Source: Saururus chinensis | Lineage: Eukaryota > Streptophyta > Magnoliopsida > Piperales > Saururaceae | NCBI GenBank assembly: GCA_035235625.1 | Contig: CP141144.1 | Coordinates: forward strand, 35,772,014-35,836,013 | Length of the DNA stretch: 64,000 nucleotides | Direction: 5' to 3' | Shown here: in pieces, positions 12,327-36,271 of the stretch | Position numbering within the stretch: position 1 is the stretch's first letter | Layout of the letters: each line of letters opens with the position of its first letter | The notes under the pieces: generated by a model | Databases searched by the model: none | The model's input: the letters and a program-made list of their open reading frames with translations, nothing else | What the model was told of the DNA's origin: nothing | Position numbers and translations under genes: made by a program

Positions 12327-13669
12327 TTGCTCGATACCCAATGAGTGCAAGGAGGAACTCGTTGGGTATTACGACCTCTGGATTAATCATCATCAAACGA
12401 ACCAACATTTTCTGATTCTGTTTTGAAATATGTTTTCTTAGGAAAAGATAAAGTTTTAAATTATTTTGTAAAATTTGGGCTTAACATTACTTTAGATATT
12501 AACACGACCTACTTAGCCCCAGATTATGCAAGAACTACAATTAGAACGAAAGTAGAAGATAAAGAATTATCTAAATGATTTATTTGGTTGTTGTAGATAT
12601 AATTTTTGTAATTATTTTGTGACTAGTACATAAAGGCATGATATGCCTTACTATTGTGTAACTATCTACTCTATGCACAATGCTTGTAGGCATGTAGTTA
12701 AATTTACTATACTCCAAGACATTGATATTTATAATATTTTGGTTGTGCAATTACTCCGAGGTTTTTTTCTTTACATATGATGTCATGTTTAAATTTTGTG
12801 TATTATCGATTGTCGTCACGTTTGGTCATGTGAGTATAATTTACACGTGTCTGATAAAATTATGATATTTATTATTTTAAAATGGCAGTCATCATAGTCT
12901 ACACCAAAGTAATGTATTTTTCCTAAAGTACTTATATTTATGTGATTAATAAAATAGGGCTAGAGTTATGTGTGATTTTGTTCTTTTGTATATCTTTAAA
13001 TGTATTTAACCCTTGTCTAATTATTAAATATCAAGCGTAAAATTATAACTTTATGGATATTAATTATCATCACTAGCTTCATATATAATTATCACATTTC
13101 AATCAATTGGGATTGGCGGAATGGACTAATAATGTTTAAACTACTTATCTATATGTCATCAGTTAAGTCTCACTTTAAAAGTCGTCTAATAATAATTGGA
13201 GCAACTTCTAGCGGTGGTAGTTGCTGTAATTAAAGATAACGCTAACTGTAAATAACAGTAATTAAATTATAATAACTATGAAGGTAATAATATTAATTGA
13301 CAATAATAAGAAACTAAGAAGAACAAAAATCACATATCTATTGTTACTTACTGATAAGATAGTCATTAATTACATGTTGGCGTTCATCAAATAGTCACAA
13401 AAAAGATTAATGAAGCTTATAAGTATTTACTTTAGACCAAAACATAATAGCATGTAGTTGGAAACCAATTGATCATGAAACAGGCAGTGTTTTGCCTTTC
13501 TTTTTTAGAAAAAAAAACCATCTTATTAAGTGGGGTGTTTTGCTTGGACCCCTACTAGCTCATTAAATGAGGGGTATATAAAAAGGTGTAGGGGGGACGT
13601 TGAAGCCTTATCCCAGAAAAAAATACATGTCACGAACCAAAGCTAAGAAAATATTTACACCACTACTAG
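12327..13669. other. Intergenic stretch, no gene seen
   Basis: About 1.3 kb of AT-rich DNA without a supported ORF, RNA gene or repeat. A GTATATAAAAAGG motif at 13573 looks like a TATA element on the plus strand, but no transcript start or ORF follows it convincingly. Confidence 0.4.
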
Positions 13670-15626
13670 TCAAATACGAACTCCAGGCAAATCTTTTATT
13701 GATGAGGATATGTCATCATCTTCTATGACTTGATCTCCGTGAGCAATCGCAGTGGTTTCTTCAATTTCTACTGCCATAGTTGAGAATTGGTCATTATTTT
13801 CTGTGTGTTCACACAACTTCTCTAAATAAGCTTCATCCAATTCTGGAAATTGTTCTCCATAGTCAATTGTAGGAATTTCCAAAATGTATAATTCCTCTTG
13901 TTAATTTAGTGATGGTCTGAAAGTCTTCAACAAAGGTAGTGTGAGATGCTGCTTCCGATGCAGGGAATTCATCTCCATTGGCAGTTGCAGGGTTTTCCAA
14001 CATGCCTAGTTCCCCTTGTTCGGTGATGGCAGGCAAGTCTTTCTAGATGGTAGTGTGAGATGCTCCTTCCAATGCAGGGAATTCATCTCCATTTGCAGTA
14101 GGGTTTTCCAACATGCCTAGTTCCCCTTGTTCTGTGATAGCCAGCAAGTCCGTAGAGATGGTATGAAATGCTTCTTCCAATGCAGGGAAGTGATCTTCAT
14201 TGACAGTTGCAGGGTTTTCCAACATGCACAATTCCCCTTGTTCGGTGATGGCCAACAAGTCTATAGAGATGATAGTGCGAGATGACTCATCTAAGGCAGG
14301 GAAGTGATCTCCATGGGCAGTTGCGGGTTTTCCAACATGGCTAGTTCTTCTCGTTCATTGGTGAACTCTTCAACCATGGCAAGGGCTTCTTCAAAACCTA
14401 TTTCTCTTACATCGAGCCTTAATTGATCTCTATTTGCAGTACGGTTTTCCAACATGCCAAGTTCCCCTTGTTCGGTGATGGCCAGCAAGTCTGTAGAGTT
14501 GATAGTGGGAGATGCTTCTTCCAATGCAGGGAAGTGATCTCCATGGGCAGTTGCAGGGTTTTCCAACATGGCTGCTCCTCATTCATTGGTCAACTCTTCA
14601 ACCATGTCAAGGGCTTCTTCATAACCTATTTCTCTTACATCGGGCCCTAATTGATCTCCATTTGCAGTAGAGTTTTCCAACATGCCTAGTTCCCCTTGTT
14701 CCGTGATGGTCGGCAAGTCTGTAGAGATGGTGTGAGATGCTTCTTCCAATACAGGGAAGTGGGTCCCCTTGTTTAGTGATGGCCAGCAAGTCTGTAGAGA
14801 TGATAGTGTGAGATGCTTCTTCCAATGCAGGGAAATGATCTCCACGGGCAGTTGCAGGGTTTTCTAACATGTCTAGTTCTCCTCATTCATTAGGCAACTC
14901 TTCAACCATGGCAAGGGCTTCTTCAAATCCTACTTCTCTTACATTAGGCCCTACATGCCGATGTCTTATCTTACACAGAACTACTTCCTTAAATTTTCCC
15001 ACCTGCAGGAATCAAAAGTTTAGAATAAGTTAGCTGAAAGAGATTTACAAAAACAGCAACAAGACCTATTGATTCAACCGAGTATAGGTTAGTTAAACTC
15101 TTCATCTATATATTTTTGTATGAACTCACATTATTATCATGAGATGAGAGAGTGAATTCTTGCATGATCCAATTAGTCTTTTGAACACGTCCATCAATGT
15201 TTCAGTGGTATTTGAATGCCCCTATCTCGCCAATTAATCTATCATCTCTGTCATGCACCTGCTTTTCCCTCTGATCTTATAGAACCCATTGCCAGCTTTT
15301 CTGCTTGCATTTTTGCCATTGCCTTCCCTTGCCATCTGAATTCTGCTAGAGAAATAATAGCGTTCGTCCATCCACCCATTAGGACCATCAGCCCCTAATT
15401 GGAGAACAATGCAACAGTCAATTATCATACACATTTGGTAAAGAATAAAAAACCCAATAAAGACAGATTGCTTAATCTAATAGCAAATGTTTCAAGAAGA
15501 TGAATGAAATAGCTACCAGTGAGGGCCCATGGCTCCATGTCGTAAACTCCTTTATCTTCAACCGCATCAGATGGGAGTGGAATATCATCAACCTTTCTTT
15601 GGAGATAACATCGAAGGAGTACATAA
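13670..15626 (-). pseudogene. NAC-domain transcription factor, broken, with tandem-repeat C-terminus
   Basis: Three minus-strand exons rebuild most of a NAC DNA-binding domain. Exon 1 (15626-15517) gives LLRCYLQRKV and YDMEPWAL (subdomains A/B). Exon 2 (15394-15130) gives DERYYFSSR, KNASRKAGNGFYK (C/D) and KTNWIMQEFTL (E). Exon 3 starts at 15002 with VGKFKEVVLCKI, the usual NAC end. Donors and acceptors are GT/AG. Exon 2 has a frameshift near 15235 and then a TGA, so the domain cannot be made in one piece. The long last exon holds about eight degenerate ~37-residue repeats with the core ITEQGELGMLENP, interspersed with REIGFEEALAMVEE modules and more breaks, and ends in an acidic tail with FPELDEAYLEKLCE. 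The N-terminal residues are missing at the junction with TNP2. Confidence 0.7.
13900..14910 (-). repeat. ~111-bp coding tandem repeats in the NAC pseudogene
   Basis: The plus-strand word GGTTTTCCAACATG recurs at about 13992, 14102, 14213, 14328, 14444, 14559 and 14672, with a GGTTTTCTAACATG variant near 14858. Spacings cluster near 111-117 bp. Each unit contains CCTTGTTCGGTGATGGC and CTTCCAATGCAGGGAA. Because the unit length is a multiple of three (37 codons), expansion and contraction would preserve frame. Individual units carry small indels that now break it. Confidence 0.75.
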
Positions 15627-15628
15627 AA

Positions 15629-17527
15629 AGACAATGTGAAGGCTCAACTAGATATGCAAGAAATGGGTATCAAAAAGGAGTTGCATCTTATTCCAAATGG
15701 TGATAAATATGTGGTGCCACAAGCTTGCTACACAATGTCCGTTGATGAGAAGAAGAGATTTTGTTCTTGGTTGAAGTTGGTGAGACTTCCAGATGGTTTT
15801 GCTTCAAACATCTCCCGATGTATACATGACAATGACTCTAAGTTAGTAGGTATAAAAAGTCACGATTGTCACATTTTTCTATAAAGGTTGCTTCCTGTGG
15901 CAATATGTGGGCAGTTATGGAAGAATGTTGGTAATGCAATAATTGAGTTAAGCTTATTTTTCAAGGAATTATGTTATAGAACTTTGAAGTTGGAAAGGTT
16001 GTAACAAATGGAAAAGGACATCGCTGTTATATTATGAAAGCTTGAGAAAATATTTCCACCTGCATTCTTTGATGTGATGGTACATTTAGCAACCACCTTC
16101 CAAGTGAAGTGATTATTGCTGGACCCGTGTAATTTTGATGGATGTATCGAATAGAAAGATTCTTGCACACTTTGAAGAAATATGTTAGAAATAAAGCATG
16201 CCAAGAAGGTTCCATTGCAGAAACATACATTAATAATGAAGGTATGAACTTTTGTTCCATGTACTTCAAATATGTTGAAACAAGATTCAATCAACAAGAG
16301 AGAAATTATGACAGTCTTCAAGGACAACAATATAGAGGTCTTTCTATTTTTATACCAAATGTATGCACTTTAGGAGCTGCAAATCCATTTATTATGGATT
16401 TAAATGAACTTCACCAGGCTCGGATGTATGTTCTGAATAGTTGTTTTGAAATTGATCACTATTTATAGTAAGTAAGCTATATTATTTGTAATTAATAGTT
16501 CATATTTCCTTTTATATCCCTATATTTGATATATTTCATATAGGGAACACAAACAATATATTTCTAGTCAAGGAGCTACTAATGTCCAAGAGAGGCATGA
16601 GCAAAATTTCCCAGAATGGTTTGCGCAACTTGTAAGTGTTTAAGACTTTTGTTACTCAAACATAAATTAGAAAGTGCATGTGCTTATTTTATTTACTATT
16701 GTTGTTAATAGATGAAACAATTGCATGCTCAAAAATCGCCGCAAACTTCTGATGCTTTGTATTCATTAGCATGTGGTCCTGATCCACTAGTCATACGATA
16801 TGCTAGTTGTATTGTCAAAGATGTTAGGTTCCATACTGCTGACCTTGATGACTATCGCAAAACTCAAAATTCTGGGGTAGTCGTCAAAGGAGAGTGTGAA
16901 GGTCGTGATATTAAATTCTTTGATGTTTTGAGAGATGTTATTGCTTTGAACTATTGTGGAGGTAAGTGTGTCTACATTTTCAAATGTAATTGGTGGGATC
17001 ATAGCAACAAGAAAGGTATGCAGAGAGATGAGCATTTCACAAGTATTAATTTCTCCCACACTTGGTACAAAGATGATGCCTTTGTATTGTCGTCTCAAGT
17101 GGAGAAAGTTTTTTACCTTAAGGACCCTAAATTGAAAGGCAATTGGCATGTAGTTCAGAAAGCACCACCACAAAACATATATGATGTTCCACATGTCTCT
17201 TCCTCTGAGGTAGAAAGGGATGATGAGACATATGAGCATGTTGATTATGAGGCAAACATGGTTGATAGGAATGTCGAAGATGAAGAACATGATTTCCATC
17301 CCCTTAGTAGGGATGATATAGGCCCAAATTTTATTAATGCTTCAAATATTTTCAAACTGGATCAAGGAGATGGTACATTTTCAGATGATGTAGCTAAAAG
17401 TGATATGGAAGATGAGACTTTGCTAGAGTATTGGGATGAAGAAGCTGATGTTGTGCCAAATGAAGATGAAGAAGAAGAAAAAGAAGAAGAAGGAGAACAT
17501 ATGTCGTCTAAAGATGACAGAAAATAA
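15629..17527 (+). pseudogene. CACTA TNP2-type transposase, 5'-truncated and frameshifted
   Basis: The C-terminal half of a plant En/Spm TNP2 protein. Landmarks in order: GIKKELHLIPNG and LPDGFASNISRC (15650-15820), the DUF4218 region with FPPAFFDVMVHLA and IERFLHTLKKYVRNKA (15885-16270), then SLACGPDPLVIRYASC and the DUF4216 domain with KGECEGRDIKFFDVL, FKCNWWD and VEKVFYLKD (16870-17130). An acidic Asp/Glu tail precedes the stop at 17525. Two introns keep GT/AG: 16468-16543 and 16632-16711. At least four in-frame stops and a frameshift lie between 15880 and 16140. The catalytic DDE core is absent: homology begins abruptly beside the NAC fragment. It cannot make an active transposase. Confidence 0.85.
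16712..17527 (+). CDS. Open last exon of the TNP2 pseudogene (271 codons)
   Basis: This is the longest uninterrupted part of the TNP2 remnant and begins right after an AG acceptor, so the ATG is an internal codon and not necessarily a start. Residues about 55-140 form the DUF4216 domain of CACTA transposases. Residues about 160-270 are acidic, with an uninterrupted Glu/Asp-rich stretch near the end. No function is expected without the missing N-terminal catalytic part. It is listed separately because the frame is intact and would be predicted as a gene by software. Confidence 0.6.
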   Translation: MKQLHAQKSPQTSDALYSLACGPDPLVIRYASCIVKDVRFHTADLDDYRKTQNSGVVVKGECEGRDIKFFDVLRDVIALNYCGGKCVYIFKCNWWDHSNKKGMQRDEHFTSINFSHTWYKDDAFVLSSQVEKVFYLKDPKLKGNWHVVQKAPPQNIYDVPHVSSSEVERDDETYEHVDYEANMVDRNVEDEEHDFHPLSRDDIGPNFINASNIFKLDQGDGTFSDDVAKSDMEDETLLEYWDEEADVVPNEDEEEEKEEEGEHMSSKDDRK

Positions 17528-18474
17528 CTTTTAACATCTTATCAATCATGGGGTAGCCGTTAAAGAAGAGTACGAAGGTTAGTGATTCTGCAGAGGAGAA
17601 GCTTGAAAATACAAAAAATGAGCTATATATTGTTTAAAGCATCAATCAATTTTTACTCTTAATTTGTTTTCCTTTTGCACTACTCCAACTATTCTCTTTC
17701 TATTATTTCAGGTATGAGATGAGGTTCAACTTGAAAGCTATTCTTGCTTCACATATAAAGATCATTGTTTCTATAGCAGTGATCATGGAAGTTACTTCAT
17801 GCTGTTCAGCACGGACATTGGAGTAATCCTAACACTGTAAGTTTAAAATTATTTGCAGTTTCCTTTAGTCTACATATTTGAGTGTAATACTCTTGCATTA
17901 TGTCCTTTAAAAATTGTGTGGCCCATTCTATCGTTTTATACCTTATGACATGATGATAAATGTCTCTGGCTGCAGCACATTGTGGCTCATTCTTATGATA
18001 GAGAGTTGGCTAGATACTCTTTTTGAATGTGTACTATTTTCTCCTTTTTCTTGTTTGTTCTCTTTCTTTCATTTTCTTATTTATCTGTTGATACCTTGCC
18101 CATAAGCCGATATTTTCTCTTTTTTGCTTTTCAAGTTTCTGATCAGTGGTAGTTCAAACCTCATAAGGAGGAAATAAATTGTAAAAAACCTCATAAGGTT
18201 TATTCAGCAATATTAATTAAGGCTGGAAATAAACTTGACCAGGTAATGTTGACATTCTATTTTTCCTTTAAGCTGGTTCATTATTCTCAATTAGCATATT
18301 CAATTTTTTCAGATTCATTAATCAGCATCTTTTATTTGCAGTATTTAACACAGACTGGTTCTAGTGAAATTAATTCAATATTCAAATATTTTGCTGGCAC
18401 TTTTCACTCTCTTGGTGGTGCTGTTTTGAAAATTTAAGTGGGCAAACTATTATAGTATAAAAACAATTTCTTCA
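17528..18474 (+). other. Non-coding or intron-like DNA with possible exon scraps
   Basis: This is T-rich intron-like sequence. Segments 17712-17840 (after a TTTCAG acceptor) and 18335-18435 (after a TTGCAG acceptor) look like short exons with open frames, but I cannot assign them to a family. They may belong to the same captured gene as the TGS-like fragment that follows. Confidence 0.3.
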
Positions 18475-18758
18475 ATGTGCTATGGATCACAACTGGTCAA
18501 TCTGCTGAGAACAACGCTACAGTGGGAAGAACAAGTGCATCAAGAAGCCTTCTCAGGGGAAGCCAAACCCGTAGTTCTTGGTGAAGTTGTGATCATAAGG
18601 TGGCCGGATGGTAATATAATGAAGATGAGTCTGGTAGCTCAGCAGTTGATGCTGCAAGAAGGATAGGATTGGAATGAAAGTTGGTTCTAGTGAATGGTCA
18701 GCTAGCAATACCAAATACTGTACTGAAAGATGGTGATATAGTGGAAGTTAGAAGATAG
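18475..18758 (+). pseudogene. TGS-like C-terminal fragment of a plant RelA/SpoT homologue
   Basis: The translated pieces GEVVIIRWPDGNIMKM, then in a shifted frame SGSSAVDAARRIGLE, KLVLVNGQLAIPNTVLKDG and DIVEVRR before a stop, follow the pattern of a TGS (beta-grasp) domain as found in plant RSH (p)ppGpp enzymes of the chloroplast. A frameshift separates MKM from SGSS, and a TGA replaces one codon after IGLE. No HD or synthetase domain is nearby, so this is a captured or dispersed 3' fragment and not a functional enzyme. The assignment to RSH rests on the pattern; another TGS protein is possible. Confidence 0.5.
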
Positions 18759-20485
18759 CAAAGAGATACGATCTGAATTAGAATAGAAAACAAGGCAGTT
18801 TCTATGATCACCTGAAACAATAAATTCCCAAGTAAATGTTGAATTTGCATGGAAGGGATTGAACAGAATCATGTTGTTTAAGATCTCATATCTGAAATGG
18901 CATTTCACAGACCAAATTGATGTACAGGTAAACTTCAAAACTTTTAACAGTAAATGTTATTATTTTATTGTTCCCTGGTATCACTCTGTTTTTTTTTTTT
19001 GGGGCAATGTCTATTAATTTCCTTATTTTTGATCAATTTAGTTTTTTTTTTCTCTCAAAGTTAGTGGAAACATCCATCTTAGCCAGGCATGTGTAATACT
19101 TTTCATTTGCCTATTCTTTAAACCGAGGCTGCCAGTAACCTGCGACAAAATGTGAACTTTGCTGCATAAGTTATATTTCTTTGATTGTTATGCAATTATT
19201 CTATTAGACATTCAAGAAAGAAAATATTTTTGTTCTCCTTGCTCTTCTTTTTGTTTTCTGAGAAACTTACCAAGAATAAAAATTCTTCTTTTTAACCTAC
19301 ATATGAATTGGTTTTCATAGTAGTTCCATTATTGTCAACAGTTAAAATATGTTCAGTTATTTTTCACAACATAGATTATCTTTTTGTCATGACATTAAAC
19401 TAACTCTATACAAACTTAACCCTTGTCTTCTTCATTTATCTTCTCCTTTCTGTCTTATTATTCTCATAATTCATATAGAATATGCCAGCTGCCAAAGATT
19501 TATGTTCATCTAGTTTGTCTTTCTCTCTTCCAAAACTTGCCGTCAATTTGTTTGGGACTGTCTGGTTGCAAAGTGTCCCTAATGCATCTTTTATCTCTGC
19601 TTATGTTGATCTAAATTCTGCTTCCCCAGAAATTCTTACTTTTCCCTATAAATTCTGCTTCCCCACGGAATAATAGTTTTATATTACTAGTAAATGTCAT
19701 TCATTGTGACACAACATCTTTGTAGGTTCAGTCTGGTGGTGAATGAGTGCTTCCATATAATATGCATTGATGCTAATTTCTTGTTTATGTTTCAAGTTTA
19801 CATTTTGTAAATTTGGTAATTATTCCTAAATATATCTCAATCTTATGTAGAGGCTTAAAAGATATGAAGTTTCTAGGGTGTTATATTATGGGTTGCTGAA
19901 CTCTGCCTACTATCTGACAACATTTCTTTTTGTATGGTGAATGACACTAAAACATGTTTTTTTTATTTTCAAGAGGTGGAAGGGGGAGGCATGGAGTTGA
20001 TGTTGGATACCAAAAGAATTTTAACTGACATGAAACAATTTTTTGCCGTGGAAAATTTGAGCTTTGTGGATGACACTCATGATGAAATTTTTAAAAAATA
20101 AAATTTGACGTATTTGGACTGGGAAATGCACATGTAAACAGGACTTTTTGTGGTAAATTGAGATTTTTATTTACCTCTCTGTTCACTGGTTCTTTGTTCA
20201 CTCAGGTCCACCTTGTTTGTGGTATGAAAATTATGGCACTTTCTATGTTTAATGGATGACAGACCTTGTTTTAAAAGACAAGATTGGAACATCTGTGAGG
20301 ATCTCCTTTCAGTTAAGAGTAATGAAAACTTAACACTGACTTGCTAAGCTAATGAATCTACTGACTTTGACATTCTGTTAATTGGAGGCAATTTATGATT
20401 TTTCTTTGGAAATACTTTTATCTATATTATCTTTGTTCTGCCATGCTATATAATTTCTGTTTGTATCTAATAAAGTCTCTTAATA
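18759..20485. other. Intron-like AT-rich stretch
   Basis: No gene is supported. Positions 19153-19345 are one copy of a direct repeat shared with 27224-27640. A stretch at 19974-20100, after a TTTTCAAG acceptor, is open for about 40 codons but shows no family motif. Confidence 0.4.
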
Positions 20486-20497
20486 TCTCATTTGAAT

Positions 20498-20686
20498 AGG
20501 GAGGCCAGAGGCTAATAAGTGCGACCTAAGCCTACAGCTAACAAGGCAAATGCAGCTAAACCTAAACCCTCATCTGCAAAGCCGAAAGCTCAAGCAGGAC
20601 CAAGTAAAAAAGAAAAGCTAGTTGAAGATGGAGGTGATGATGATGATTCCCATGAGAATGACTCAAATGAAGATGATTCTGATAAG
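20498..20686 (+). pseudogene. Lys/Pro/Ala-rich then acidic exon fragment, unknown gene
   Basis: After a polypyrimidine tract and an AATAG acceptor near 20500, an open frame encodes a basic, low-complexity segment (KPTANKANAAKPKPSS and onward) that turns sharply acidic (GGDDDDSHENDSNEDD) before a GATAAG|GTGC donor-like site at about 20686. The composition suggests a nuclear or chromatin-associated linker. I do not recognise the gene. The lack of neighbouring exons suggests an isolated fragment. Confidence 0.35.
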
Positions 20687-20976
20687 GTGCTTTTACTCAT
20701 TCTTCTTTATAATACTCAGTCGATAAAACCATACATACTTCTCTTGAACTAAATAATTTATTACATCTTTAGACAGTGCTAGGAGTTTACTTTTTTATTC
20801 TTTTCTTTTGGCACTTGTACCTTATAAATGTGCTCACATGGAAGTTTTGTGAGTTTGTGTTTTTTGGTTTGCAATCACCTTGTTCTTTTATTCCTCTCTA
20901 CTCCATGTTTTGTGTCCTGTCTTGTAATTAATCAATAGAGGCTTCATGGTAATATAGTTTGCTACCTCCCAAACAG

Positions 20977-21190
20977 GCAACAGCAGTTGTCAATTCAGGA
21001 TTGCTGTTAATGGCTGTGATGGGTATAATGTTTCCAGCAGTGCTTCATTTCACACATTCAGAGGTGCAAGAGTGGGAATTTGAGCTGTCACTTTTGAGGT
21101 TTAGCAGCTGCATTATGCTTGTTGCTTACTCAGGCTATCTTTACTTCCAATTGAACACTCAACAAAGCCAATATAGTCTGATTGATGAGA
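20977..21190 (+). pseudogene. CAX cation/proton exchanger exon fragment
   Basis: Directly after an ACAG acceptor, the frame reads TAVVNSGLLLMAVMGIMFPA, then VLHFTHSEV, ELSLLRFSSCIMLVAYSGYL and YFQLNTQQSQY. This matches the order of a conserved stretch of plant vacuolar Ca2+/H+ exchangers (CAX): a hydrophobic helix, the LHYTH-like loop, then the SRxSSCxMLxAYxxYLxFQL helix. Only this one exon is present. The 11-helix carrier would need several more exons, and I saw none upstream or downstream. The frame itself is undamaged. It is a captured fragment surrounded by unrelated fragments. Confidence 0.75.
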
Positions 21191-21731
21191 TGAAATTTGC
21201 TTTTGCACAGATTTTTATTTTTTTCCCTTAAGTTGGTTGAATAATTTCTAGTCTTATCATTTTGATGAGGTGATATGTACTTCTAAACACACTGTCCTTC
21301 ACCATTATCCTATATGTAGAGGCTACTTCCTCAATGTCCTCATGTAGTGAATAAATTTGAGCCCAATTTGTATCCCTCCCTGCCCTTAATGGAAACATCT
21401 ACAAGCTGTCAATCAGATCTTCCACTAGTAATGTAGTATGATTCTTGTTTTGTTCTGAGCTGCTCTTTTGCCATTGCTATAGTATAAAATGGTCTATAAA
21501 CTGGTTTTCTATTTCCCAACGTGTGATTGAGCTGAAATTTATGTCTTCATTGCAAATATCAGATGACTACATCACATATAAAGGTTCCCTCCCTTTCTCT
21601 CTCTCCCTCTCTGTCTCCGGGTGAATATGCATGTTTCATTCGGGGTAAAAGCATAAAAAGTTATCTCTAAAATATAGTTATGTTTTTTGTAGTATAATAA
21701 TTTCATGTGCTAACTTTGTTTTATTTTAATT
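21191..21731. other. Spacer between gene fragments
   Basis: This is AT-rich, with a short CT-rich tract at 21585-21620. No ORF or RNA gene was seen. Confidence 0.4.
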
Positions 21732-22596
21732 TTATGTTGGGTCAAAAAGTCCTGCTTTCTTGTACATCTCAAGAACAAAGGCAATACAAGAGATCGAGTA
21801 CCCATCAGAGTAAAGCCAATTATCCCATTCAGGAATAGCCAGCAATCTATCAAATGAAATGCCATGCTTTTTAGTCTCCACTAATATTTCAGGCAAATCA
21901 AGATCCTGCAGGATAAGATACATGTATCACTTTTTCACTTGAGAGCAGAATATAAAATATCCAAAACCAAGAGTAATGTGCATTTGCTTGAAGTTTTCAG
22001 CTTGAGTAAATTTTGGCCTGCATTTTCATACATGTTTAATATCCTAGAAAGATATTAAAGTTGACAAAGATTGCTCTTTTTCCACAGAACTTGTGGATGA
22101 AAGAAGTCCTTCAAGCACTTGGCTACAATTAAAGCAATTTAGGATAGGTACCTTGGTTACCCAGGCGCTTGTTAAGTGCTTCATTCCACATGTTATCAGC
22201 ATATTCAGGTTGGATATGATTCCATACAGTCATCACTGAAGCAACCTGCAACACAAAACAAAAGAATATTACTCATATGATGCATTTGTCATCCTTTACT
22301 AGAAAAAAATTCTTTTTTCAATTAGTGTTGAAAAAAAAAACTAACATTACCAAATGTGCATCCAGGGGTGGTGGGTAGTTTCCATCTATAGTATCTATCC
22401 AGCTGAAAATCATGTTGTGGTATCCATACGGTTTTTGAGCCATGCTTTTTGCATACTCCCAAATAGCAGTTTCATTGAATTTGGCCCGAACCTCTGGCAG
22501 CAAAGGCAATAAAGGTATACGGGGATTTGAATCGTCTTTGGTCAGTTCAAAGTTCCACCACTCATCCCATGCCAACAAAGCAATAATATCTTCACC
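21732..22596 (-). pseudogene. Three exons of a conserved plant protein of unknown function
   Basis: Minus-strand exons at 22596-22351, 22245-22152 and 21905-21732 have proper AG acceptors and, for the first two, GT donors. They encode in order DEWWNFELTKDDSNPRIPLL, PYGYHNMIFSWIDTIDGNYP, SVMTVWNHIQPEYADNMWNE, DWxYSDG-like WLYSDGYSISCIAFVLEMYK and GLFDPT before a TAA. I recognise this as a widespread land-plant protein whose fold is possibly papain/NlpC-like (the conserved His, Asp and Cys-containing SCIAF motif fits), but I cannot name it with certainty. Exons 2 and 3 do not join in phase: exon 2 ends one base into a codon and exon 3 needs phase 0, consistent with a one-base insertion at the acceptor. 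N- and C-terminal exons are missing. Confidence 0.6.
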
Positions 22597-22667
22597 CTAT
22601 GAGAAAAGAACACATAATTTTTCATTAATAATTCAGATTGAAAGAGTTGACACATGTATAGATTATA

Positions 22668-22810
22668 CCATCATTGCTCAACTACTTATCATCTTCCAAC
22701 TACAAACACATATTTCACAAACAATAGATATACCACCATTGTTGACAGTCATGCTCAATTACTTATCATCTTCCACTACAAACACATATTTCACAAACAA
22801 TAGATATGGA
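22668..22810. repeat. 77-bp tandem duplication
   Basis: The word TGCTCAACTACTTATCATC at 22675 recurs with one change at 22752. Both copies continue through ACAAACACATATTTCACAAA and CAATAGATAT. The copies are nearly identical, so the duplication is recent. Confidence 0.8.
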
Positions 22811-23094
22811 AGCATGTAAAACGGCTCTTCTAAAGCAGTGAATTGTATGTCACTTGAGATACATGTTCCAAAGAATTGAAAAATCAATATGAATTACCCT
22901 CTCATTTTCATGACCAGATTCGCATAAATATGTTATTATAAGATCTATATTTTTGTTTGCAGTTGCATAAATATGAAGTTCAAATGGATGAAAGGTGTAT
23001 TTGAGAATATATTATGTTATGAATATGAGAATGCAAAAAGTAAAGGTGATCAAACAAAAATTAACTAGAATTTTGTATAAACAAATAATTATTT

Positions 23095-23220
23095 TTAGCG
23101 GCAGTTTTGTAGTTTTTAGCGACGGCTTTGAAAGTTGCCGTTAAAAGTATTTAGTGACGGCTATCAAAATTGCTGGCTAAAAGTATTTAGTGACAGCTAT
23201 CAAAATTGCTGGTAATTGCT
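23095..23220. repeat. CACTA-like subterminal motif cluster
   Basis: Four to five alternating motifs of the type TTTAGCGACGGC and GCCGTTAAAAG / GCTGGCTAAAAG occur in 120 bp. The word differs from the TTAGCGACGC of the two non-autonomous elements, so it probably comes from another CACTA family. No terminus was seen. Confidence 0.45.
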
Positions 23221-24577
23221 TTAGATATGGCTGATACGTATTGATACACTAATATTTTACAAAATTATTATTTTTAAATATAGTGTACTTAGTTAAACAT
23301 CTAATGTATAAATCTCTATAATATTTATGCAACTCATATTAAATATCTTGGTTTCAAAATAAACTAATTTTATAGAACTTAAAATGGGATAGGGGGAATA
23401 ATAATTTTCATGGTTTGATTATGCATTAAACGAAGTTTTATAATGATATATTATTAGTTATAATATTTTTTTTATTTGTATCAAATGGTTTACAACTACT
23501 TGGGTGCGTACCAAACATATCAATGCATATATCCTTATTATAAAATAAATATATCTATGTATGTTGTCGAATCATAGTCTAATGGCTAATGATGAATCAG
23601 TGCATTTCTTTTTTTAAAGTATGACAAATGTATGATATTTTAAAAAAATCAAATTTATCGTATTTGGATCATTTTAATCTTTTTATTATATATTTTACGC
23701 ATCATGCATGTGGTTTATGAAACAATGTTAATTAATAGTTCTTGTTTCTGACAATCTGTAACTATTTTAAATTTATATTTCAATATTAGCTTTATGGTTT
23801 CATTATTGTTAATATAACATTATTATGCAATGAATATATTACACTATTTTTAATTTATTTTTTTACTTATTAATATTAGCCAATGCGCATTGTTTGAACC
23901 ATGCATCAAATCTTAATTTGACAAAAGGTTGAGGATCATTTTAATCTTTTTATTATATATTTTATTAGGTATGCAAGTGGTTTATGACTGACCAACTGGA
24001 ATAGACTAGACCCGGTTTACATTTTGGATTGGGCTAGCCAGTTTCTTTCATTTTTTAGGCATATTGGAGTCATAGTGACCCGCCCAGGTGAACCGCTAAG
24101 TGCTGACCTACCGACCCCAATCAGATTAGTTCCCCTAACATAGGGCTGCTTCTCAGGTTAGGTTAAATTGGGTTTTACAGGACATGACCCGACTCTATCT
24201 GAAATCAAATCTAAAAAACCCGAGAGATTCTATCTTGGTTCAGGTCGGTTCCAATAATTATAAAAATTCTTATAACCATGGTTAAATATAATTTTATAAT
24301 TTAATTAGGACTTTTGGTTGGTTTGAGTTGATTCTTGAGTTTTCATATACTGGATCCGGACTGAGATAGGTACCAACCCGACCCAAACCAAGTTACTCTT
24401 GGGTCAGTTCTATCCAGATCGGTTTGGATCCAAATTTTTAATACAACCCTACCCTAATATTTAAAATAGTGCATGTGGGTACAAGAATAAACTTGGTAAG
24501 GTTTTTATTTTGACCTAGGCCAACCCAAACCGCTTGAACTGCCCGGCCCTGTAACTAATTGCGGGAGTGGGCTGTAA

Positions 24578-25258
24578 ATGCCCTCATTCGCGCGCATGTT
24601 TGGTTTCGCTCTTCCTCCAGGCATCTTTCCACCCGAGACACTCGGCATGGATCGTCTGATTTCTGTACACAATAAGGATCTTCCCAGAATGGTTAAGACT
24701 CATCACCTCCGATCCTTATTTCTTGTAGCATGGAGTCGCTTTGCTCCCTTTGCGAGAAACCCTTTACTTGAAGTCATCCAGTCCATTGTTCTCTGTGTCT
24801 CTCAGATATGGATAAAGTTAATTTTATAATCCACTCCGATTTTTAGTTCTCTGTTAGATCAGAATTGCTTAAGAGTACTAGACCTGATTATTTGTAATGA
24901 ATACTATCTAGATTTATTGTTTGGTCGACTTTTCTGGCCGCTCCATTTTTGAGTTCTCTGTTAGATCAGAAATGCTTAATAGTGCTGGACCTGATTATTT
25001 GTAATGAATACTATCTACATTTAATGTTTCGTCGACTTTTCTGGTTTAGATTTACCTATATAATTCATGTGGCCACCTTTATTTCACTTGTTAGCTTTGC
25101 AACAACAAATTGGCTCTTAATCCTGTTGTTCATTATCTTTATGACGTTCTGACTTTTCTTGCTCTTTGAGTTCAAACTTCTGATAAAATTTTAATAATTT
25201 TGTTCTGTGTCACACCTGCAGCATTTTTCTGATAATTTTAATTTTCTGTGTCAGCCTT
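24578..25258. other. Stretch with an unassigned 83-codon ORF and a 107-bp duplication
   Basis: An open frame at 24578-24829 starts MPSFARMFGFALPPG and has no motif I recognise; I do not call it a gene. The segment starting AGTTCTCTGTTAGATCAG at 24845 is repeated at 24952 (offset 107 bp), with a shared ACCTGATTATTTGTAATGAA block and GTCGACTTTTCTGG end. Confidence 0.45.
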
Positions 25259-25945
25259 TTTCAACTTTCATTTACCACATTAATTTCCTTTACAAGGTCA
25301 TGATTCATAGCCCAAAGATGATCCAATTTACTACATAGATTTTTCAGTTCTGAGTCTTTCCAGGAGGGGAAAATCTTTAGTACAAAAGAAAATTAATTTA
25401 GAGCCAAACCTTCTTTTAGCACAACATTGTATTCTTCCTCTAAAATATTCTGCTCTAGAAATTCCTTTTCTGCAATTAGATATGAAGACTCAAGGCTAAT
25501 CTATTGTAGTAGAGAAGCATTTTCAGCTCTCTCTCTATATTTAGTAATTCCTCAGTTGCTGGTTTTTTCCTGATTGTATAGAGAAGCTCTCTCTATCAAT
25601 TTCAACTTTCATTTACCACATTAATTTCCTTTACAAGGTCATGATTCATAGCCCAAAGATGATCCAATTTACTACATAGATTTTTCAGTTCTGAGTCTTT
25701 CCAGGAGGGGAAAATCTTTAGTACAAAAGAAAATTAATTTAGAGCCGAACCTTCTTTTAGCACAACATTGTATTCTTCCTCTAAAATATTCTGCTCTAGA
25801 AATTCCTTTTCTGCAATTAGATATGAAGACTAAGGCTAATCTGTTGCAGTAGAGAAGCATTTGCAGCTCTCTCTCTATATTTAGTAATTCCTCGGTTGCT
25901 GGTTTTTTCCCTGATTGTATAGAGAAGCTCTCTCTATCAATATTC
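25259..25945 (-). pseudogene. Duplicated coiled-coil fragment, NETWORKED (NET1)-like
   Basis: Two adjacent copies, 25259-25599 and 25600-25945 (offset 341 bp), are almost identical. On the minus strand the frame includes YLIAEKEFLEQNILEEEYNV, VLKEG, FPSWKDSELKNLCSKLD and HLWAMNHDLVKEINVVN, with a TAA between VLKEG..N and FSFV. The spacing and wording recall the long coiled coil of plant NET1 actin-binding proteins, in which a short non-helical part precedes an LxxLDxLxxxNxDLxKEV repeat. The stop is present in both copies, so decay preceded the duplication. The identification is tentative; another coiled-coil protein is possible. Confidence 0.4.
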
Positions 25946-26143
25946 ACTGCATTTATTGATACTCTCTCTATATATATCCAAAATATAATATACAAAGCAG
26001 GATCTTACAGGTATGCAAACTGACCTGAGATTCCTTTTGATGCTCTGTTTTTTCCTGATACGCAAACTGACCTGATATCATCTTGCTTCTTTTGAGGGCT
26101 CCCCTTCTCTCTTGAATCCTTTCTTCTGGTATATTTTTTCTTT

Positions 26144-26355
26144 TATGAATGCCAGAAATCATGGAGATGTTGAGATGGGGAAGAATGTGGCTGAACAATT
26201 ATTTAGTTTAGAACCAGCAAATGTGGGCTATTATGTTTCACTTTCAACTACATATGCTGCATCGGGAAAATGGATAGATGCAGTTCAAATGAGAAAAAGG
26301 TTCCAAGAAAGGGGCCTGATAAAGCAGCTGCTAGCAGTCAAATTGATATTTTGAC
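26144..26355 (+). pseudogene. PPR protein C-terminal (E-motif) fragment
   Basis: After a GCCAG acceptor-like site at 26154, the frame encodes NHGDVEMGKNVAEQLFSLEP, ANVGYYVSLSTTYAASGKW and AVQMRKRFQERGLIKQ before a stop at 26352. This is the typical final repeat and E motif of plant PLS-class pentatricopeptide proteins (organellar RNA editing factors). The rest of the repeats lies nowhere nearby, and the DYW or E+ extension is lost. The single exon is uninterrupted. It is another isolated host fragment in this mosaic. Confidence 0.75.
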
Positions 26356-27146
26356 CTCATCACAGATTGCTTTGTAGCTGAACTTCAGTTTTTGAACAGT
26401 TTGGTAGTTGTGCTAACCACAAAAAGAGTGATAGATGTATGTTTTATAGCTTCTTGGGTGAGTGTATTAACAGAACTCGACTGGGATAATTTATATTGGA
26501 CGAAGATGTAAGATATTGACAGCAATTTCAATGTAAATGTAAATAAAACTTGTACTCGAGCAAACTGTCAGCCTACCGACTGGATTTCATAGTATGTATT
26601 CTTTTCTGCTGAGAGTAATTCAAATTTACTTATTACTTGTGAAGTTCTTTCTGATTTAGTCAGAAGAAGTTTTCTAGGTTCTCAATGTTCTATCTATTTA
26701 TTAAAAAAATAAACCACTCTTAAGATAGGGCCTTTGCTCTTTACATGTTTTTGTCCTTTCAATATGAATGCTTTTTAAGGAACAGTCCATAAGAAATTGA
26801 CATGGCACCTAACAGAAATAAAAATGATATGGCCATGATAAGTGTTGTTTTAGTTCTCTCACTAGAATATTGGTTATTCATGTCCATTTTGATTGACTAT
26901 TAGCAATCTACGGGCAGCAGTGTGGTTTAAGCACAAAAGAGAAGATTAGCATTACAATGCAAGACATTATGCTTAGTCATGTTTTTATTTATTTGTTTGT
27001 TTCCAGTTCTAACTCAAAGATTTGAGCCAGTTTCTTCTATGGATTGCTCATGTTTCTACTTTTTGTTTGAAGCGGTTGCCAAGTGACCCAAAAGTGGTGA
27101 AGGAGAGAGGAGAATGGGGTGAAATAATATAATAGAATAAGAAGGT

Positions 27147-27195
27147 ACTCCCTCCGCCCCATATTAATAGCTCCATTTGACATTGTTGCACTCAA
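27147..27195. mobile_element. Truncated Stowaway-like MITE end
   Basis: TACTCCCTCCGCCCCATATT at 27147 is the left terminal inverted repeat of plant Stowaway (Tc1/mariner-derived) MITEs with its TA target. The matching right end was not found within 300 bp, so only one end remains. Confidence 0.5.
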
Positions 27196-27223
27196 CTGTT
27201 GTTCATTATCTTTATCACATTCT

Positions 27224-27640
27224 GAACTTTGCTGCATAAGTTAATAACCTTCTACACCTGATCTGCATTGAAAAGGCTGACTTGTGGCATTTAATTTTTG
27301 AACTTTTGCCTGAGAGTTTACAAGAAAGTAACAATATAATTTAAATCACGAAGAAAATAATTACATGAGCCAAAATCTGTAATACATACATATTAGGATG
27401 GATGATCGGGGGGTGGAGATGCAAATCTGTAAGGAAACATATGGGAGATCATTATTTGAGTAATTTGAGTGTGTCTTTGATTGTTATGCGATTATTTTAT
27501 TAGACATTCAAGAAAGAAAATATTTTTGTACTCCTTATTCTTCTTTTTGTTTTATGAGAAACTTACCAAGATTAAAAATTCTTCTTTTTTACCTATATAT
27601 AAATTGGTTTTCATAGTAGTTCCATTATTGCCAAGATTGC
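27224..27640 (+). repeat. Direct repeat, second copy of 19153-19345, with insertion
   Basis: GAACTTTGCTGCATAAGTTA at 27224-27243 matches 19153-19172, and TCTTTGATTGTTATGC from 27473 resumes the match through ACATTCAAGAAAGAAAATAT and TGGTTTTCATAGTAGTTCC. About 229 bp between (27244-27472) are absent from the first copy. The 8-kb separation lies wholly inside the gene-fragment mosaic. Confidence 0.7.
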
Positions 27641-28266
27641 CACATAATTTAATTAATCCCCTTATTCAAATATCATCTATAAGGTAATGATTATTTGATC
27701 TATATCTTTTGCAGCATTTTTCTCATCATTTTTCTTAAGTTTTTTTAAATTTGCTAAGCTTCAGCAAAATTAGATGTTAAATTTATAACCTAACAGTATC
27801 ACATGTTATTGTGTTATGTGTTTATTTGAGTCCATATGCACACACTTACCTGCTAGTACTTCTGAGATATAGACACATCCTTCACTTGCATGATGTTTTT
27901 TTTCTTGATTATTAAGACTCTACACCCTTCACTATTTGCCATTGAGACTTGACCCCCCCTAGACCTCTCATTAAATTGGGAGATCACCAACCAACCCAGC
28001 TAGTGTGGAATTAGCATCTTGCATGAAAATTTTAAACCGACAAAAGTTCATTTCTTAGATTTAGGCTATTTTTTTTATTCAGAACTTAGCTTTATTCTAT
28101 TTTATTTAATTCATTTATCCTACTTGAATTACTTTTCATTAATATAAAGTTTTATAATCATCTCCTTTCACCTATTTTATGTTTTTGTTGTAGTACTATA
28201 TTATGGCACCATGTAAGTGGGCCATGCCCATCATTTCAAGCAGACATAGGGCCATCAGAGTCTCCA

Positions 28267-29629
28267 ATGGAGGAGTTTACATTTGCAGCTCCACTTATGT
28301 CTACCACTAACTCAACACCAAAGAAAAAACGTGGTAGAGCAATTTGCAAAAAATTATCAAAATATTTGCATAATAAACCTGGTCAACTTCCAACCATTTC
28401 TTTCCAACTAGGTATGTTGACACCTGTTGGACCATGGGCCCAAGAGCTTATTAGCGAGGTTGAAAGGTTGTGTCGCACTTACGCGAAGCTTATTTATAAA
28501 AGATGGTCTGAAGTCCCTAAAGTTGACAAAACCTAGATAAAGGCCCTAATTGTTGTAAGTATATGCTATGACTTTAATTCATTATTATTTTTTAAATTAA
28601 ATTATAGGTGTTAATATTTCATAAATAAATTGATTTTTTTAGTCCAAATTTGATATTAACATGGATGATAACCAAGTTAAGAAGGCAGCTAACAAATTCT
28701 TAGCTACTCACTTTTGGTCCCACAAGAATAGAGCACACGCACATTATCAGAAATATGGAACCTCAACACCTTATGATGGGATTTCTCTTGATGAATGGCT
28801 AGAAATTTGTAAAAATTTTGAGGATGACAAATACAAGGTATGATGTCATTTAGAATTTAATTTTTTTCTTTAAATGACTTAGTATCTGAAATATAACTTA
28901 TAATTTATTCTATATAGTTAAGAAGCTAAACAAACAAGGATAATCGTGCAAAGTTATCTATGAACCACACTGCCGATTCAAAGTTTTGTTAGAGTTCTCG
29001 CAGAGATGGAAAATTTTACATAAATTTCATATAATAAAGTATATTCAATAATTAATTTTTTTTACTTTGTATAATGTACTAAATTTCTATTGATCTTTGA
29101 TAAATTGAATTAATCAGTAAGAAAAAGAGCCAGATGAGGAGCCTGACCTTATAAACTTTTATAAAGTTGCACACTTCCAAAAGAAAACTAGGAGTTTGGT
29201 GAAACCGTGTTGTAAACCTCTACAGTAATGAATGTTAAATTTATTTATTATATTTGTTGTTTAGTTATTAACATTCTAAAATAATCTTGGAATTTACTTC
29301 ATGCATATTTTTATGTAGGCACAAATGAATTAGAAGGTGGTTGCATCCAAGCAAGAAGACAGATTCTGAGAAGAATGATATGGGCTTGGGCAAGGTCAGG
29401 ATGTATTAATGGGCTTGGGCATGGTATGATGCCTATTTCATTAGGCAACCCTTCTCAAGATGATATCGATGTTATTAAGAATGCTAATATGAGGGCTGAG
29501 GTGGCTAAAGAACATGCAAAATCTTTGGAAATGGATCTGCACACTTTTAGATCAAAGCAAGTTAAACTAGAGTCGATGGTTCTAAGACTAATGGAGCAAC
29601 AACCAATACAATCAGATTCATTAGTTTAG
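28267..29629 (+). pseudogene. Transposase_24 (En/Spm TNPA-side) gene, decayed
   Basis: Exons match the order of the plant Transposase_24 family carried by CACTA elements. Exon 1 (28267 to about 28555) has KKKRGRAICKKL, FQLGMLTPVGPWAQELISEV and WSEVPKVDKT. Exon 2 (28643-28837) has SKFDINMDDNQVKKAANKFL and WLEICKNFED. Exon 3 (from 28918) has NRAKLSMNHTADSK, the family's NKxNRxKL..HTxGS motif. Then come a DEEPDLINFYKVAHFQKK exon (29118-29226) and a final exon from about 29323 whose last frame (29375-29629) is a helical, coiled-coil tail. Stops occur after PKVDKT and at least twice in exon 3, so it is inactive. It sits about 1 kb left of a CACTA terminus. Confidence 0.7.
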
Positions 29630-30671
29630 GTCCAAAGTTTCTTTACACAAAAGGCTTATTTATTGTTTAATTTTATGTATAGCTATATAAATATAAATTA
29701 ATTAAACTATAATTCTTTACTACATCATGCTAACTTTACTTTTTGTAAATTTATAGGTGAATAAGGGAGTTCAAAAGAATCATCAAAATTTGCAAAGAAA
29801 GAAAATGATATATATTTTGTGATTTCTTTTGTGAAATAGTTGTGGTTTTATTCTAGTTATTTGGTATTTTTTAGTTTGTCAAATGTATTAGATTTATGGT
29901 TTGTAAAACAATGGATGATATTTAGTTTAATACTAAGGTGCTAAGTTTATCTTATGCATTTTAAATTTATACAGTTCTCTTGAATTTGTATATTTTTAAA
30001 TATCCTCCCCCCACCCCACCCCACCGCCCGCCTGCATGCCCACCCAAATAATTGGGTATAGCCATTGCAATTAGCAACGACTTAAATTTGTCCTTAAAGA
30101 TCTTTTCCAACAAACTTCTCTTGTCGCAAATGAAATTTATTTTGTTGCAAATATATTACAATCATTTACGACGAATTCCAGTTGTCGCAAATATTTGTAA
30201 AAAATATACACATGTGAATCTTTTTGTGACATATACAATTTGTCGCAAATTGTTTAACATCATATGCGATGAATTTGGTTTATCGCTAATACTCTTTAAA
30301 AATTATCTAATATCAAGCATTTGCAACATATGCACTTATGCAGTTTGTCACAAATACACTAAAATCAATTGCAACAATTTGTTTTTGTTGCAAATGCCAA
30401 AGCTTTTACCACGTAATTATATATTTTTAATATTTTTTAACTCAAACAATTATATTTTTTGCGACATAATAATTACTTTTTTGCAACAAATAAACTCGTT
30501 GCAAAAGAGTATTTTATTTACGACTAATAAAAATTTGTCGCAATGACTTTTTGTGACACCTTACTTGCGATAAAACTACACAAATTTTTTTGTCGCAAAA
30601 TCATTTGTGCGACAAAAAATGAACCTTATGTGACAAATGCATTTGTTGCAGAAGCCCCTTTTGTTGTAATG
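29630..30671 (+). mobile_element. Right end of a CACTA element
   Basis: From about 30060 the sequence is packed with alternating TTGTCGCAAAT and TTTGCGACAAA-type subterminal motifs. It ends CCCCTTTTGTTGTAATG at 30671, the inverted complement of a CACTACAACAAAA terminus with one change (TAATG for TAGTG). The motif differs from the TTAGCGACGC family, so this is a separate CACTA family. The matching left terminus was not found; TNP2 at 15.6 kb and Transposase_24 at 28.3 kb are the probable coding part. The 164-codon frame at 30052-30546 is made of these repeats and is not a gene. Confidence 0.65.
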
Positions 30672-31262
30672 TATATGCACATTATTGGTACTATTACGCT
30701 CTTAAATTCGAGCTCTATCAAACAAGATCCAAAAGGGTACATAATTTTAAATTTTTAAAGTAGGCCCCACCAATATGGCACATTTTTTAAGGATCAAATT
30801 GATATGAGAGATAGCCATTGAAAAATAAGAGAATCTATAATTTTTGAAATGGAGGTTGGAGCTAAAATTGACATGAGGTGATTCTGTGATTCCCATTGAT
30901 TCTAGTCGATTCTGGCTCAAAATGGCTTAAATAAACTTCAATGCGGAATTTTTAATTCTGGCAACATTCTACGCATAAACATGATTCCGATAATTTGAGC
31001 CAGAATTGGGACAGAATCAATAGAATCGTACAAAAATTTAGTACACAAACAACCCCTAAGTATGTGGGTTGTTGTGTGGACTAACTTTTCATTTAGTAGT
31101 CTTTTAATATTCTCATTTAGCTCTTGTACAAAGTTGATGTGCACAACTCCGTAACGAACTATCCAAGTAGGGGATAAGTCTTCCACAATTGAACATTACT
31201 TCACTGAGCCGCGCACTACCTTCCCCTTGGACCGGGTTTGACTCGGGGATAGGGGTCTCAGG
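30672..31262. other. Intergenic stretch
   Basis: No gene is supported. The minus-strand sequence beginning TGTCACGCCCTGAGACCCC at 31269 looks like the start of a plant LTR, but no partner or primer-binding site was seen. Confidence 0.35.
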
Positions 31263-31700
31263 GCGTGACATCCACAATGCTAGAACTTATCCCTCTACCT
31301 TTCACTCTTGACCTATGTAGGTTGGCACTATCGAAGGATTTTTTTTGTCACTCTCTTTTACATTTAGAAAGATAGTAGGTTTTGTTGAGGAGGTAGACAA
31401 GCAATTCCTAATTCCTAAGCCCATCTTGTTGGTTTAACCAATATTAAGCATAGTTTCCAATTTATTTTTCCCACTCTTGAATCCATTTAATTTCTCTTTA
31501 GAGGATATGAGCTCTCTATTGAGACCACTAGACTTCTTATTTTCATTCTCTAGGTCTTTCTTAAGGTCATGCACCTCTCTTTTAAGTTTGTTATTCAACT
31601 ACACTAACTATTTGCCTCTTAAGAAGACAACTAGTTCATTATCTTTCTTCTTTAACTCTCTCTCAAGACTTTTTGGTTTTCTTAGTTAACACTAAGAATT
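31263..31700 (-). pseudogene. Ty1/copia gag-side coiled-coil fragment (SIRE-like)
   Basis: The minus strand encodes ERELKKKDNELVVFLRGK, LNNKLKREVHDLKKDLENEN, KSGKNKLETMLNIG and MGLGIRNCLSTS, with stops between. Copia elements of the SIRE/Maximus lineage carry this kind of coiled coil followed by a Leu-rich block and a GLG.. motif just before the zinc knuckle. Pol was not found to the left. The assignment is tentative. Confidence 0.4.
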
Positions 31701-36190: not shown

Positions 36191-36271
36191 TTTCGGCCCC
36201 CCTCCTTCCTCCTACTAGGATGAAGAATTAGAGATCCATGTATAGTAAATTATCAGTATTTGCCATGGCCA

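What the first reader, a model, noticed from the sequence alone, without database searches (positions are those of the whole stretch)
13670..30671. A 17-kb CACTA-associated mosaic carrying fragments of at least six host genes
Between a truncated TNP2 (15.6-17.5 kb) and a Transposase_24 gene with a CACTA right end (28.3-30.67 kb) lie pieces of a TGS/RSH-like gene, a CAX exon, a conserved unknown protein, a NET1-like coiled coil and a PPR tail. A NAC gene abuts TNP2 on the left. The fragments lie on both strands and most keep intron borders. TNP2 and Transposase_24 normally sit together in one CACTA element, so the fragments are probably inside it: a giant Pack-CACTA. What is seen is the order of fragments; that they moved as one unit is inference.
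Basis: partly seen in the sequence, partly recalled or inferred. Interest (0 to 1): 0.8.

Follow-up and report, generated by a model that had tools for sequence, protein, structure and literature searches.

The report
Gene-fragment-carrying CACTA transposon, left end lost
This stretch of a plant chromosome is an old jumping gene (a CACTA transposon) whose family picked up bits of several host genes and carried them in the same order to other places in the genome; such elements are already known, and the copy here has lost its left end.

Summary
The fragment order is real and belongs to a mobile unit, but a smaller one than claimed. The host genome is searchable (516 Mb, 11 contigs). Three complete CACTA copies elsewhere have both termini and matching 3-bp target duplications. 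In all three, homology to the window runs to the right terminus at 30671; in two it starts exactly at 15626. Another copy on C1 (29.09 Mb; both termini, but flanking bases do not match) covers 11,360 of the 11,898 bases 18774-30671 and has all six tested modules in order. Counting the window, 34 loci carry two or more of the six modules on one strand; 32 keep the window's order. Corrections: (1) The NAC gene is not cargo but a truncated copy of a chromosome-9 NAC cluster, fused to a broken TNP2; none of 32 other matches crosses that joint. (2) No left terminus was found in the window. (3) The cargo was built in steps: the CAX module also occurs without the unknown-gene piece, which in the window sits in place of 190 bp. 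Four cargo gene identities have support; the 'NET1' name does not. Every aspect has published precedent: a new member of a known kind.

The parts
12897..15625 (-). NAC-gene segment, a truncated copy of a C9 NAC cluster (5.68-5.89 Mb); neighbour, not part of the transposon
   Evidence: Nine C9 matches begin exactly at w12897; C9 homology ends exactly at w15625
15625..15626 (.). rearrangement joint: NAC coding sequence fused to the interior of TNP2
   Evidence: None of the 32 non-self matches to w15480-15780 crosses it; sequences around the joint
15626..17537 (+). TNP2 transposase gene, 3' part only (DUF4218, DUF4216); Transposase_21 part and left terminus missing
17995..18780 (+). TGS-domain gene fragment (RSH-like by recall), frame broken
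   Evidence: 85-89% to C6:39.87 and 85-87% to C7:1.03, in two pieces; exon open there, PF02824 hit on the C7 one
20247..21740 (+). CAX module: acidic reading frame (20519-20749) and CAX exon (about 20977-21200); continues at 22931-23176
21741..22926 (-). fragment of a conserved gene of unknown function, spanning introns, both ends inside reading frames judged to be exons
   Evidence: 94% to C6:43814300-43818300, where further reading frames of the gene continue on both sides
22931..23176 (.). continuation of the CAX module beyond the unknown-gene piece
   Evidence: L043 and L039 alignments
23554..26123 (.). 'NET' block (coiled-coil-like reading frames on the minus strand; gene name not confirmed), with 107-bp and 341-bp tandem duplications
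   Evidence: Also, in whole or part, in C5:46.17, C3:33.69, C1:29.10 and others
26154..26382 (+). PPR gene C-terminal tail (E motif); the homologous block continues to 27268 in C1:24.36
28200..29626 (+). Transposase_24 (TNP1-type) gene, degenerate
   Evidence: Conserved in relatives; domain shown on the C5:46.17 copy, no such hit with window pieces
30030..30653 (.). right subterminal region with repeated TTTGTCGCAAA-type motifs
30654..30671 (-). right terminus CATTACAACAAAAGGGGC, followed by TAT
   Evidence: aligned to the right termini of complete copies

Best explanation
Window 15626-30671 is roughly the right four-fifths of an old, defective CACTA transposon of the TNP2/Transposase_24 kind. 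Its family picked up pieces of at least four host genes between the two transposase genes (TGS-domain gene, CAX, an unknown conserved gene, a PPR gene), plus a 'NET' block and an acidic exon of unproven origin, and carried them around the genome in a fixed order. Shown: shared order at many loci, termini at several, 3-bp target duplications at three. Inferred: the family moved by cut-and-paste with transposase supplied by intact relatives, and the cargo was built stepwise by faulty repair of excision gaps (template switching), partly second-hand from other elements that already carried the CAX module. In the window the left end, with part of TNP2, was lost in a rearrangement that joined the remainder to a truncated NAC copy. 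This copy is not autonomous, and the TGS exon and Transposase_24 frames are broken, so no protein function is expected of it.
For: Complete copies with matching flanks: C1:24357063-24370621 (TGA), C5:44365133-44378873 (TGT), C5:46171593-46180899 (AGA) (element ends). C1:24.36 aligns with 15626-17767, 18015-22108, 26154-27268 and 27572-30671. C1:29.09 covers 11,360 of 11,898 bases 18774-30671, with termini at 29110476 and 29093815. Of 86 same-strand clusters, 34 (window included) have two or more of six modules, and 32 of these 34 are collinear. 14 of 15 right-terminus matches have a module within 20 kb inside the element. Stepwise assembly: L043 has 190 bp where the window has 1,190 bp holding the unknown-gene piece, and C6:43.81 keeps reading frames of that gene on both sides of the captured stretch. 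Reversed-pattern controls for both termini gave 0 matches.
Against: The window copy has no left terminus and no testable target duplication, so its own transposition is inferred from relatives. The best full-cargo copy, C1:29.09, has non-matching 3-bp flanks (TCT and AAG), so it may be rearranged. The third complete copy, C5:46.17, shares only 22680 onwards (NET block and right end), not TNP2 to CAX, with the window. Two of the 34 multi-module loci are not collinear (C5:44.37 with internal duplications; C6:16.93, probably two neighbouring elements), and 19 of the 34 have only two modules. C6:43.81 has a 5-bp gap that shifts the frame against the window exon, so it may not be the true parent. 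No parent was proven for the CAX, PPR or NET pieces. Repair by template switching was not tested.
Confidence: 0.92

Rival explanations
1. The whole 13670-30671 block including the NAC fragment is one mobile unit.
For: NAC and TNP2 are directly adjacent with no gap.
Against: 0 of 32 other matches to w15480-15780 crosses the joint: 24 match only the TNP2 side and 8 only the NAC side. NAC homology runs on leftwards to 12897 in the C9 cluster. No left terminus was found left of the NAC.
Confidence: 0.03
2. The order is spread by large segmental duplication, not by transposition.
For: One real segmental duplicate exists: C5:33.55-33.57 Mb matches w1-3370 and w27644-40000 (only w1-40000 was compared) at 96-97%, except 87% over the GA-rich 33.6-36.6 kb, inverted, with w3370-27644 missing and the same bases to the right of the terminus.
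Against: In the three complete copies, homology to the window stops within about 10 bp of the right terminus, and all three have matching 3-bp flanks.
Confidence: 0.04
3. The CAX module, and perhaps others, entered as an insertion of another, already gene-carrying transposon that was later partly deleted, rather than by template switching.
For: Seven further loci hold the CAX query nearly whole at 89-92% outside the clusters with other modules; five were read (L039-L043). A CACTA-like right end TTTTTGTAGT(G), which the window lacks, is seen in L040 and L043, and the L039 and L041 alignments reach the same point; L042 does not. Exchange of captured DNA between two CACTA families is reported in wheat (PMC4290129, passages seen).
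Against: No terminus of that second family was seen inside the mosaic, and its left end was not read.
Confidence: 0.4
4. The fragments are at their ancestral places and the transposon inserted among them.
For: None found.
Against: The same order occurs on other chromosomes between CACTA termini.
Confidence: 0.01

Closest known systems
Tgm-Express1 of soybean (PMC1947982; abstract and outline seen)
   Different: 5.7 kb against more than 15 kb here; here TNP2 and Transposase_24 remains are kept and several loci carry the order
Tgmt* of soybean, 20.5 kb (PMC2613891; passages seen)
   Same: One large CACTA with transposase_21 (tnp2) and transposase_24 (TNP1) domains, and a three-base duplication on insertion
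   Different: Putatively autonomous; the passages seen describe no cargo of this sort
CACTA-captured genes of wheat chromosome 3B (PMC4290129; passages seen)
   Same: 140 capture events, exon shuffling, and the same gene in two CACTA families, read by the authors as exchange of DNA
   Different: Different families and cargo; the passages seen hold no module-by-module comparison within one family
Pack-CACTA / Pack-TYPE elements (PMC8903248, passages seen; review PMC13317346, passages seen; Catoni et al. 2019 not held)
   Different: Pack-TYPE are defined as non-autonomous and sorted apart from elements with transposase hits; this family keeps transposase remains
CACTAs of Chenopodium (PMC8978399; passages seen) and grapevine (PMC2528002; passages seen)
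   Same: CACTAs with captured gene fragments; grapevine CACTAs are 10-25 kb
   Different: In Chenopodium the fragments lie 5' of ORF1, whereas here they lie between TNP2 and Transposase_24; fewer fragments per element in the passages seen

Membership tests
CACTA (En/Spm) superfamily: the element family, judged on its complete copies | CACTA-type terminal inverted repeats at both ends | tested here: met
   C5:44.37, C5:46.17 and C1:29.09 have CACTACAACAAAA at both ends; C1:24.36 has CAATACAAC at the left and CACTACAAC at the right
CACTA (En/Spm) superfamily: the window copy itself | CACTA-type terminal inverted repeats at both ends | tested here: not met
   Right end only, as CATTA; no left end found. 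The window stretch is therefore described as a truncated remnant of a CACTA copy, not as a complete CACTA element
CACTA (En/Spm) superfamily | 3-bp target-site duplication | tested here: inconclusive
   3 of 4 relatives with both flanks read have it; C1:29.09 does not. Not testable in the window copy
CACTA (En/Spm) superfamily | TNP2 (Transposase_21) transposase gene | tested here: met
   C-terminal domains in the window; Transposase_21 in two relatives
CACTA (En/Spm) superfamily | second, TNP1/TNPA-type gene and repeated subterminal motifs | tested here: met
   PF03004 E 1.2e-14 in a relative; TTTGTCGCAAA-type motifs clustered at 30.0-30.6 kb
Pack-CACTA (Pack-TYPE definition) | host coding DNA between CACTA termini | tested here: met
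   Met in relatives with both termini, C1:24.36 and C1:29.09
Pack-CACTA (Pack-TYPE definition) | no transposase sequence in the element | tested here: not met
   TNP2 and Transposase_24 remains present, so not filed as a Pack-CACTA in that sense
Pack-CACTA (Pack-TYPE definition) | parental genes found elsewhere in the genome | tested here: inconclusive
   TGS: two loci with an open exon. Unknown gene: one multi-exon locus, frame shifted by a 5-bp gap. CAX, PPR, NET: none proven; a protein search for the CAX parent did not complete

The most novel reading that the evidence does not exclude
The family works as a shared pool: gene-fragment modules were combined in different sets at more than thirty loci and passed between different CACTA families, so a fragment captured once could be re-used second-hand by unrelated elements and even seed a tandem array (C7:26.66 Mb).
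Probability: 0.3. Interest if true: 0.5.

Novelty: new member of a known kind. Interest (0 to 1): 0.35.

Why it matters
It is a clean, checkable example of stepwise cargo assembly in a transposase-bearing CACTA family: loci with and without each module exist in one genome, so break points and the order of captures can be read. It also shows how such mosaics can mislead gene annotation, and that a gene fused to a transposon end (the NAC here) need not be cargo.

Tried and rejected
Looked for a left terminus in the window by fuzzy pattern and by homology with the left 4,434 and 3,053 bp of two complete copies: none convincing; the few short matches there fall mostly in the right subterminal repeats and low-complexity DNA. 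The CACTACGACAAAA at 8833 and the CACCACAACAAAA at 33414 were rejected as partners because their subterminal motifs (TTAGCGACGC) belong to another family. The idea that the element inserted inside the NAC gene, with the gene's other half to the right of 30671, was tested and rejected: the C9 sequence beyond the joint has no credible match in the window (best E 0.16). The idea that the five C8, C10 and C3 loci carry spliced copies of the unknown gene was rejected: the 87 bases they lack lie inside a continuous reading frame in the window.

Counting notes. One search joined same-strand hits no more than 16 kb apart; it used 57 of the 92 rows (left out: 19 of the 20 rows of the C7:26.66 tandem array, and small rows) and all rows; the window is one of its 34 loci. 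One search used a subset of rows (T24 25 of 43, TGS 11 of 27, CAX 6 of 29, UNK 7 of 16, NET 19 of 92, PPR 12 of 27), so its 14 of 15 is a lower bound. The search tool itself says its counts are lower bounds. A mistake of mine: protein 5 began with 20 typed residues that do not come from L043; the Aph-1 hit (residues 19-52) lies almost wholly in the real part, but is a lead only.
Full report
Setting. The window is G000:C5:35772014-35836013 of a 516-Mb genome in 11 contigs.

Is it there? Yes. TNP2 C-terminal domains DUF4218 and DUF4216 were found in reading frames 16139-16465 and 16712-17524. The right-end gene is a Transposase_24: the domain was shown on joined reading frames of a relative, while the window's own pieces gave no such hit. 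The right terminus ends at 30671. Cargo identities: TGS by an open paralogue (the window exon itself gave no hit); CAX by a weak match to a solved vacuolar cation/proton exchanger, E 0.0045; PPR by the E motif. The unknown gene has no Pfam family. The NET1 label was not confirmed (no Pfam hit); the minus-strand reading frames look like coiled coil, and the name is recalled. An acidic reading frame at 20519-20749 precedes the CAX exon; some loci match it without matching the CAX exon, so it may come from yet another gene.

Did it move as one unit? Yes, from 15626 rightwards. In the five regions fetched first, three elements have both termini and matching 3-bp flanks: C1:24357063-24370621 (13,559 bp, TGA), C5:44365133-44378873 (13,741 bp, TGT) and C5:46171593-46180899 (9,307 bp, AGA). 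The C1:24.36 element aligns with window 15626-17767, 18015-22108, 26154-27268 and 27572-30671 at 90.5-92.1%, so it holds TNP2, TGS, CAX, part of the unknown gene, the PPR tail and Transposase_24 in order, without the NET block. The C5:44.37 element also starts matching at 15626 and holds TNP2, pieces of TGS and CAX with internal duplications, and Transposase_24. The C5:46.17 element shares only 22680 onwards: the NET block and Transposase_24. The fourth region (C3:33.69) has NET, PPR and Transposase_24; no pair of ends was found there. The fifth (C5:33.57) is a segmental duplicate, discussed below.

A further copy at C1:29.09 has termini at 29110476 and 29093815 (16,662 bp) and, in the pieces read, covers 11,360 of 11,898 bases 18774-30671 at 86-93%. 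It has all six modules in order, but its 6 kb left of the TGS piece holds no match to window 12000-33400; there it matches only the left part of other copies, so the window's TNP2 stretch is missing. Against the simplest reading, its 3-bp flanks do not match (TCT and AAG).

Genome-wide, DNA searches with six modules gave 86 same-strand clusters; 34, the window included, have two or more modules, and 32 of the 34 keep the window's order; 19 of the 34 have only two modules. The two exceptions are C5:44.37 (internal duplications) and C6:16.93 (probably two elements). Right-terminus patterns match 15 places and left-terminus patterns (up to 2 mismatches) 41 places, with 0 matches for the reversed control of each. 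14 of the 15 right ends have a module behind them. Eight of the 15 right ends have a listed left end facing them within 30 kb, read from the two lists, and C1:24.36 is a ninth whose left end was read directly. One of these, C8:10531788-10561348, spans 29.6 kb; one, C5:19648558-19654161, has no module. Outer flanks were read for four of the nine.

The NAC gene is not cargo. Nine matches in the C9 NAC cluster begin exactly at w12897, and that homology ends exactly at w15625. A query across the joint found 32 other places: 24 match only the TNP2 side (23 of them starting exactly at the joint) and 8 only the NAC side; none crosses. Both genes are cut within coding sequence. The missing halves were not found elsewhere in the window. 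So the window copy lost its left end, about 3.0-4.4 kb by comparison with two complete copies, in a rearrangement. To the left of the NAC segment lies a repeat (12290-12895; matches at 69-80%), and beyond that a different CACTA family.

How the cargo was built. The unknown-gene piece (21741-22926, minus strand) corresponds at 94% to C6:43814300-43818300, where more reading frames of the gene follow on both sides; its two edges fall inside reading frames judged to be exons. That C6 locus is itself frame-shifted by a 5-bp gap, so it may be a sister rather than the parent. In L043 (C5:43.71), which carries the same CAX module but not this piece, 190 bp lie between the points that flank 1,190 bp in the window. 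That looks like replacement of a short stretch by a longer foreign one, as expected of gap repair with template switching; the mechanism was not tested. The review passages seen (PMC13317346) describe another route, aberrant excision across neighbouring insertions, which was not tested either. The CAX module is nearly whole in seven other loci at 89-92%; in L040 and L043 it is followed by a different CACTA-like right end, so it may have been taken second-hand. Five loci on C8, C10 and C3 share the unknown-gene, NET and PPR modules with a common 87-base gap in the unknown gene, and two of them have this family's right terminus further on, 3.5 and 5.1 kb from the start of the PPR match. Among the 34 clusters, NET occurs with Transposase_24 in 19; TGS is in 10, PPR in 14, the unknown gene in 8 and CAX in 7 (counted). 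This suggests, but does not prove, an order of capture.

The segmental duplicate. C5:33.55-33.57 Mb is an inverted duplicate of the window at 96-97% (87% over the GA-rich 33.6-36.6 kb), in which w3370 is joined to w27644 (only w1-40000 was compared). It shares the bases to the right of the terminus, so it was most likely copied after the transposon was in place, and then lost 24.3 kb.

Comparison with what is known. CACTAs with five unrelated gene fragments (PMC1947982, abstract), large CACTAs with both transposase domains (PMC2613891, passages), many capture events and exchange between families in wheat (PMC4290129, passages), multi-locus Pack-CACTAs in maize (PMC8903248, passages), and gene fragments in CACTAs of Chenopodium and grapevine (PMC8978399 and PMC2528002, passages) cover each aspect of this finding. 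The family is therefore a new member of a known kind. What is unusual is the number of loci in which the modules can be seen present or absent, which makes it a good study case rather than a surprise.

Noticed in passing
C7:26658782-26675933 of G000: 20 matches of about 80-96 bp of the NET block (about w25065-25162), mostly spaced about 675 bp apart: a tandem array that contains a piece of the transposon-borne block.
   Followed up: no
window 8833-12295 and 33414-36200: Ends of what looks like another CACTA family (TTAGCGACGC subterminal motifs) with long CT/GA-rich tracts of extreme strand skew.
   Followed up: partly
window 1-3370 and 27644-40000: Inverted segmental duplicate at C5:33.55-33.57 Mb, 96-97% identical outside the GA tract, lacking 24.3 kb.
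   Followed up: partly
L043 (C5:43.71 Mb), about 201-345 in CAX orientation: A possible APH-1 (gamma-secretase subunit) exon upstream of the CAX module; the peptide scanned had a mistyped start, so a lead only.
   Followed up: no
C9:5.68-5.89 Mb of G000: Cluster of NAC-like sequences; the window NAC segment and one at C5:30.786 Mb are outlying copies. The window copy's C-terminal part is a repeat of about 111-bp units.
   Followed up: partly
window 46856-63088: Large inverted and direct repeats with reading frames that look like retrotransposon gag (by recall, no family search), apparently several partly inverted copies.
   Followed up: no
window 24831-25044 and 25259-25946: Two tandem duplications (107 bp x2, 341 bp x2) inside the NET block; the 341-bp one has 232 identical bases between copies, so it looks recent.
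   Followed up: no
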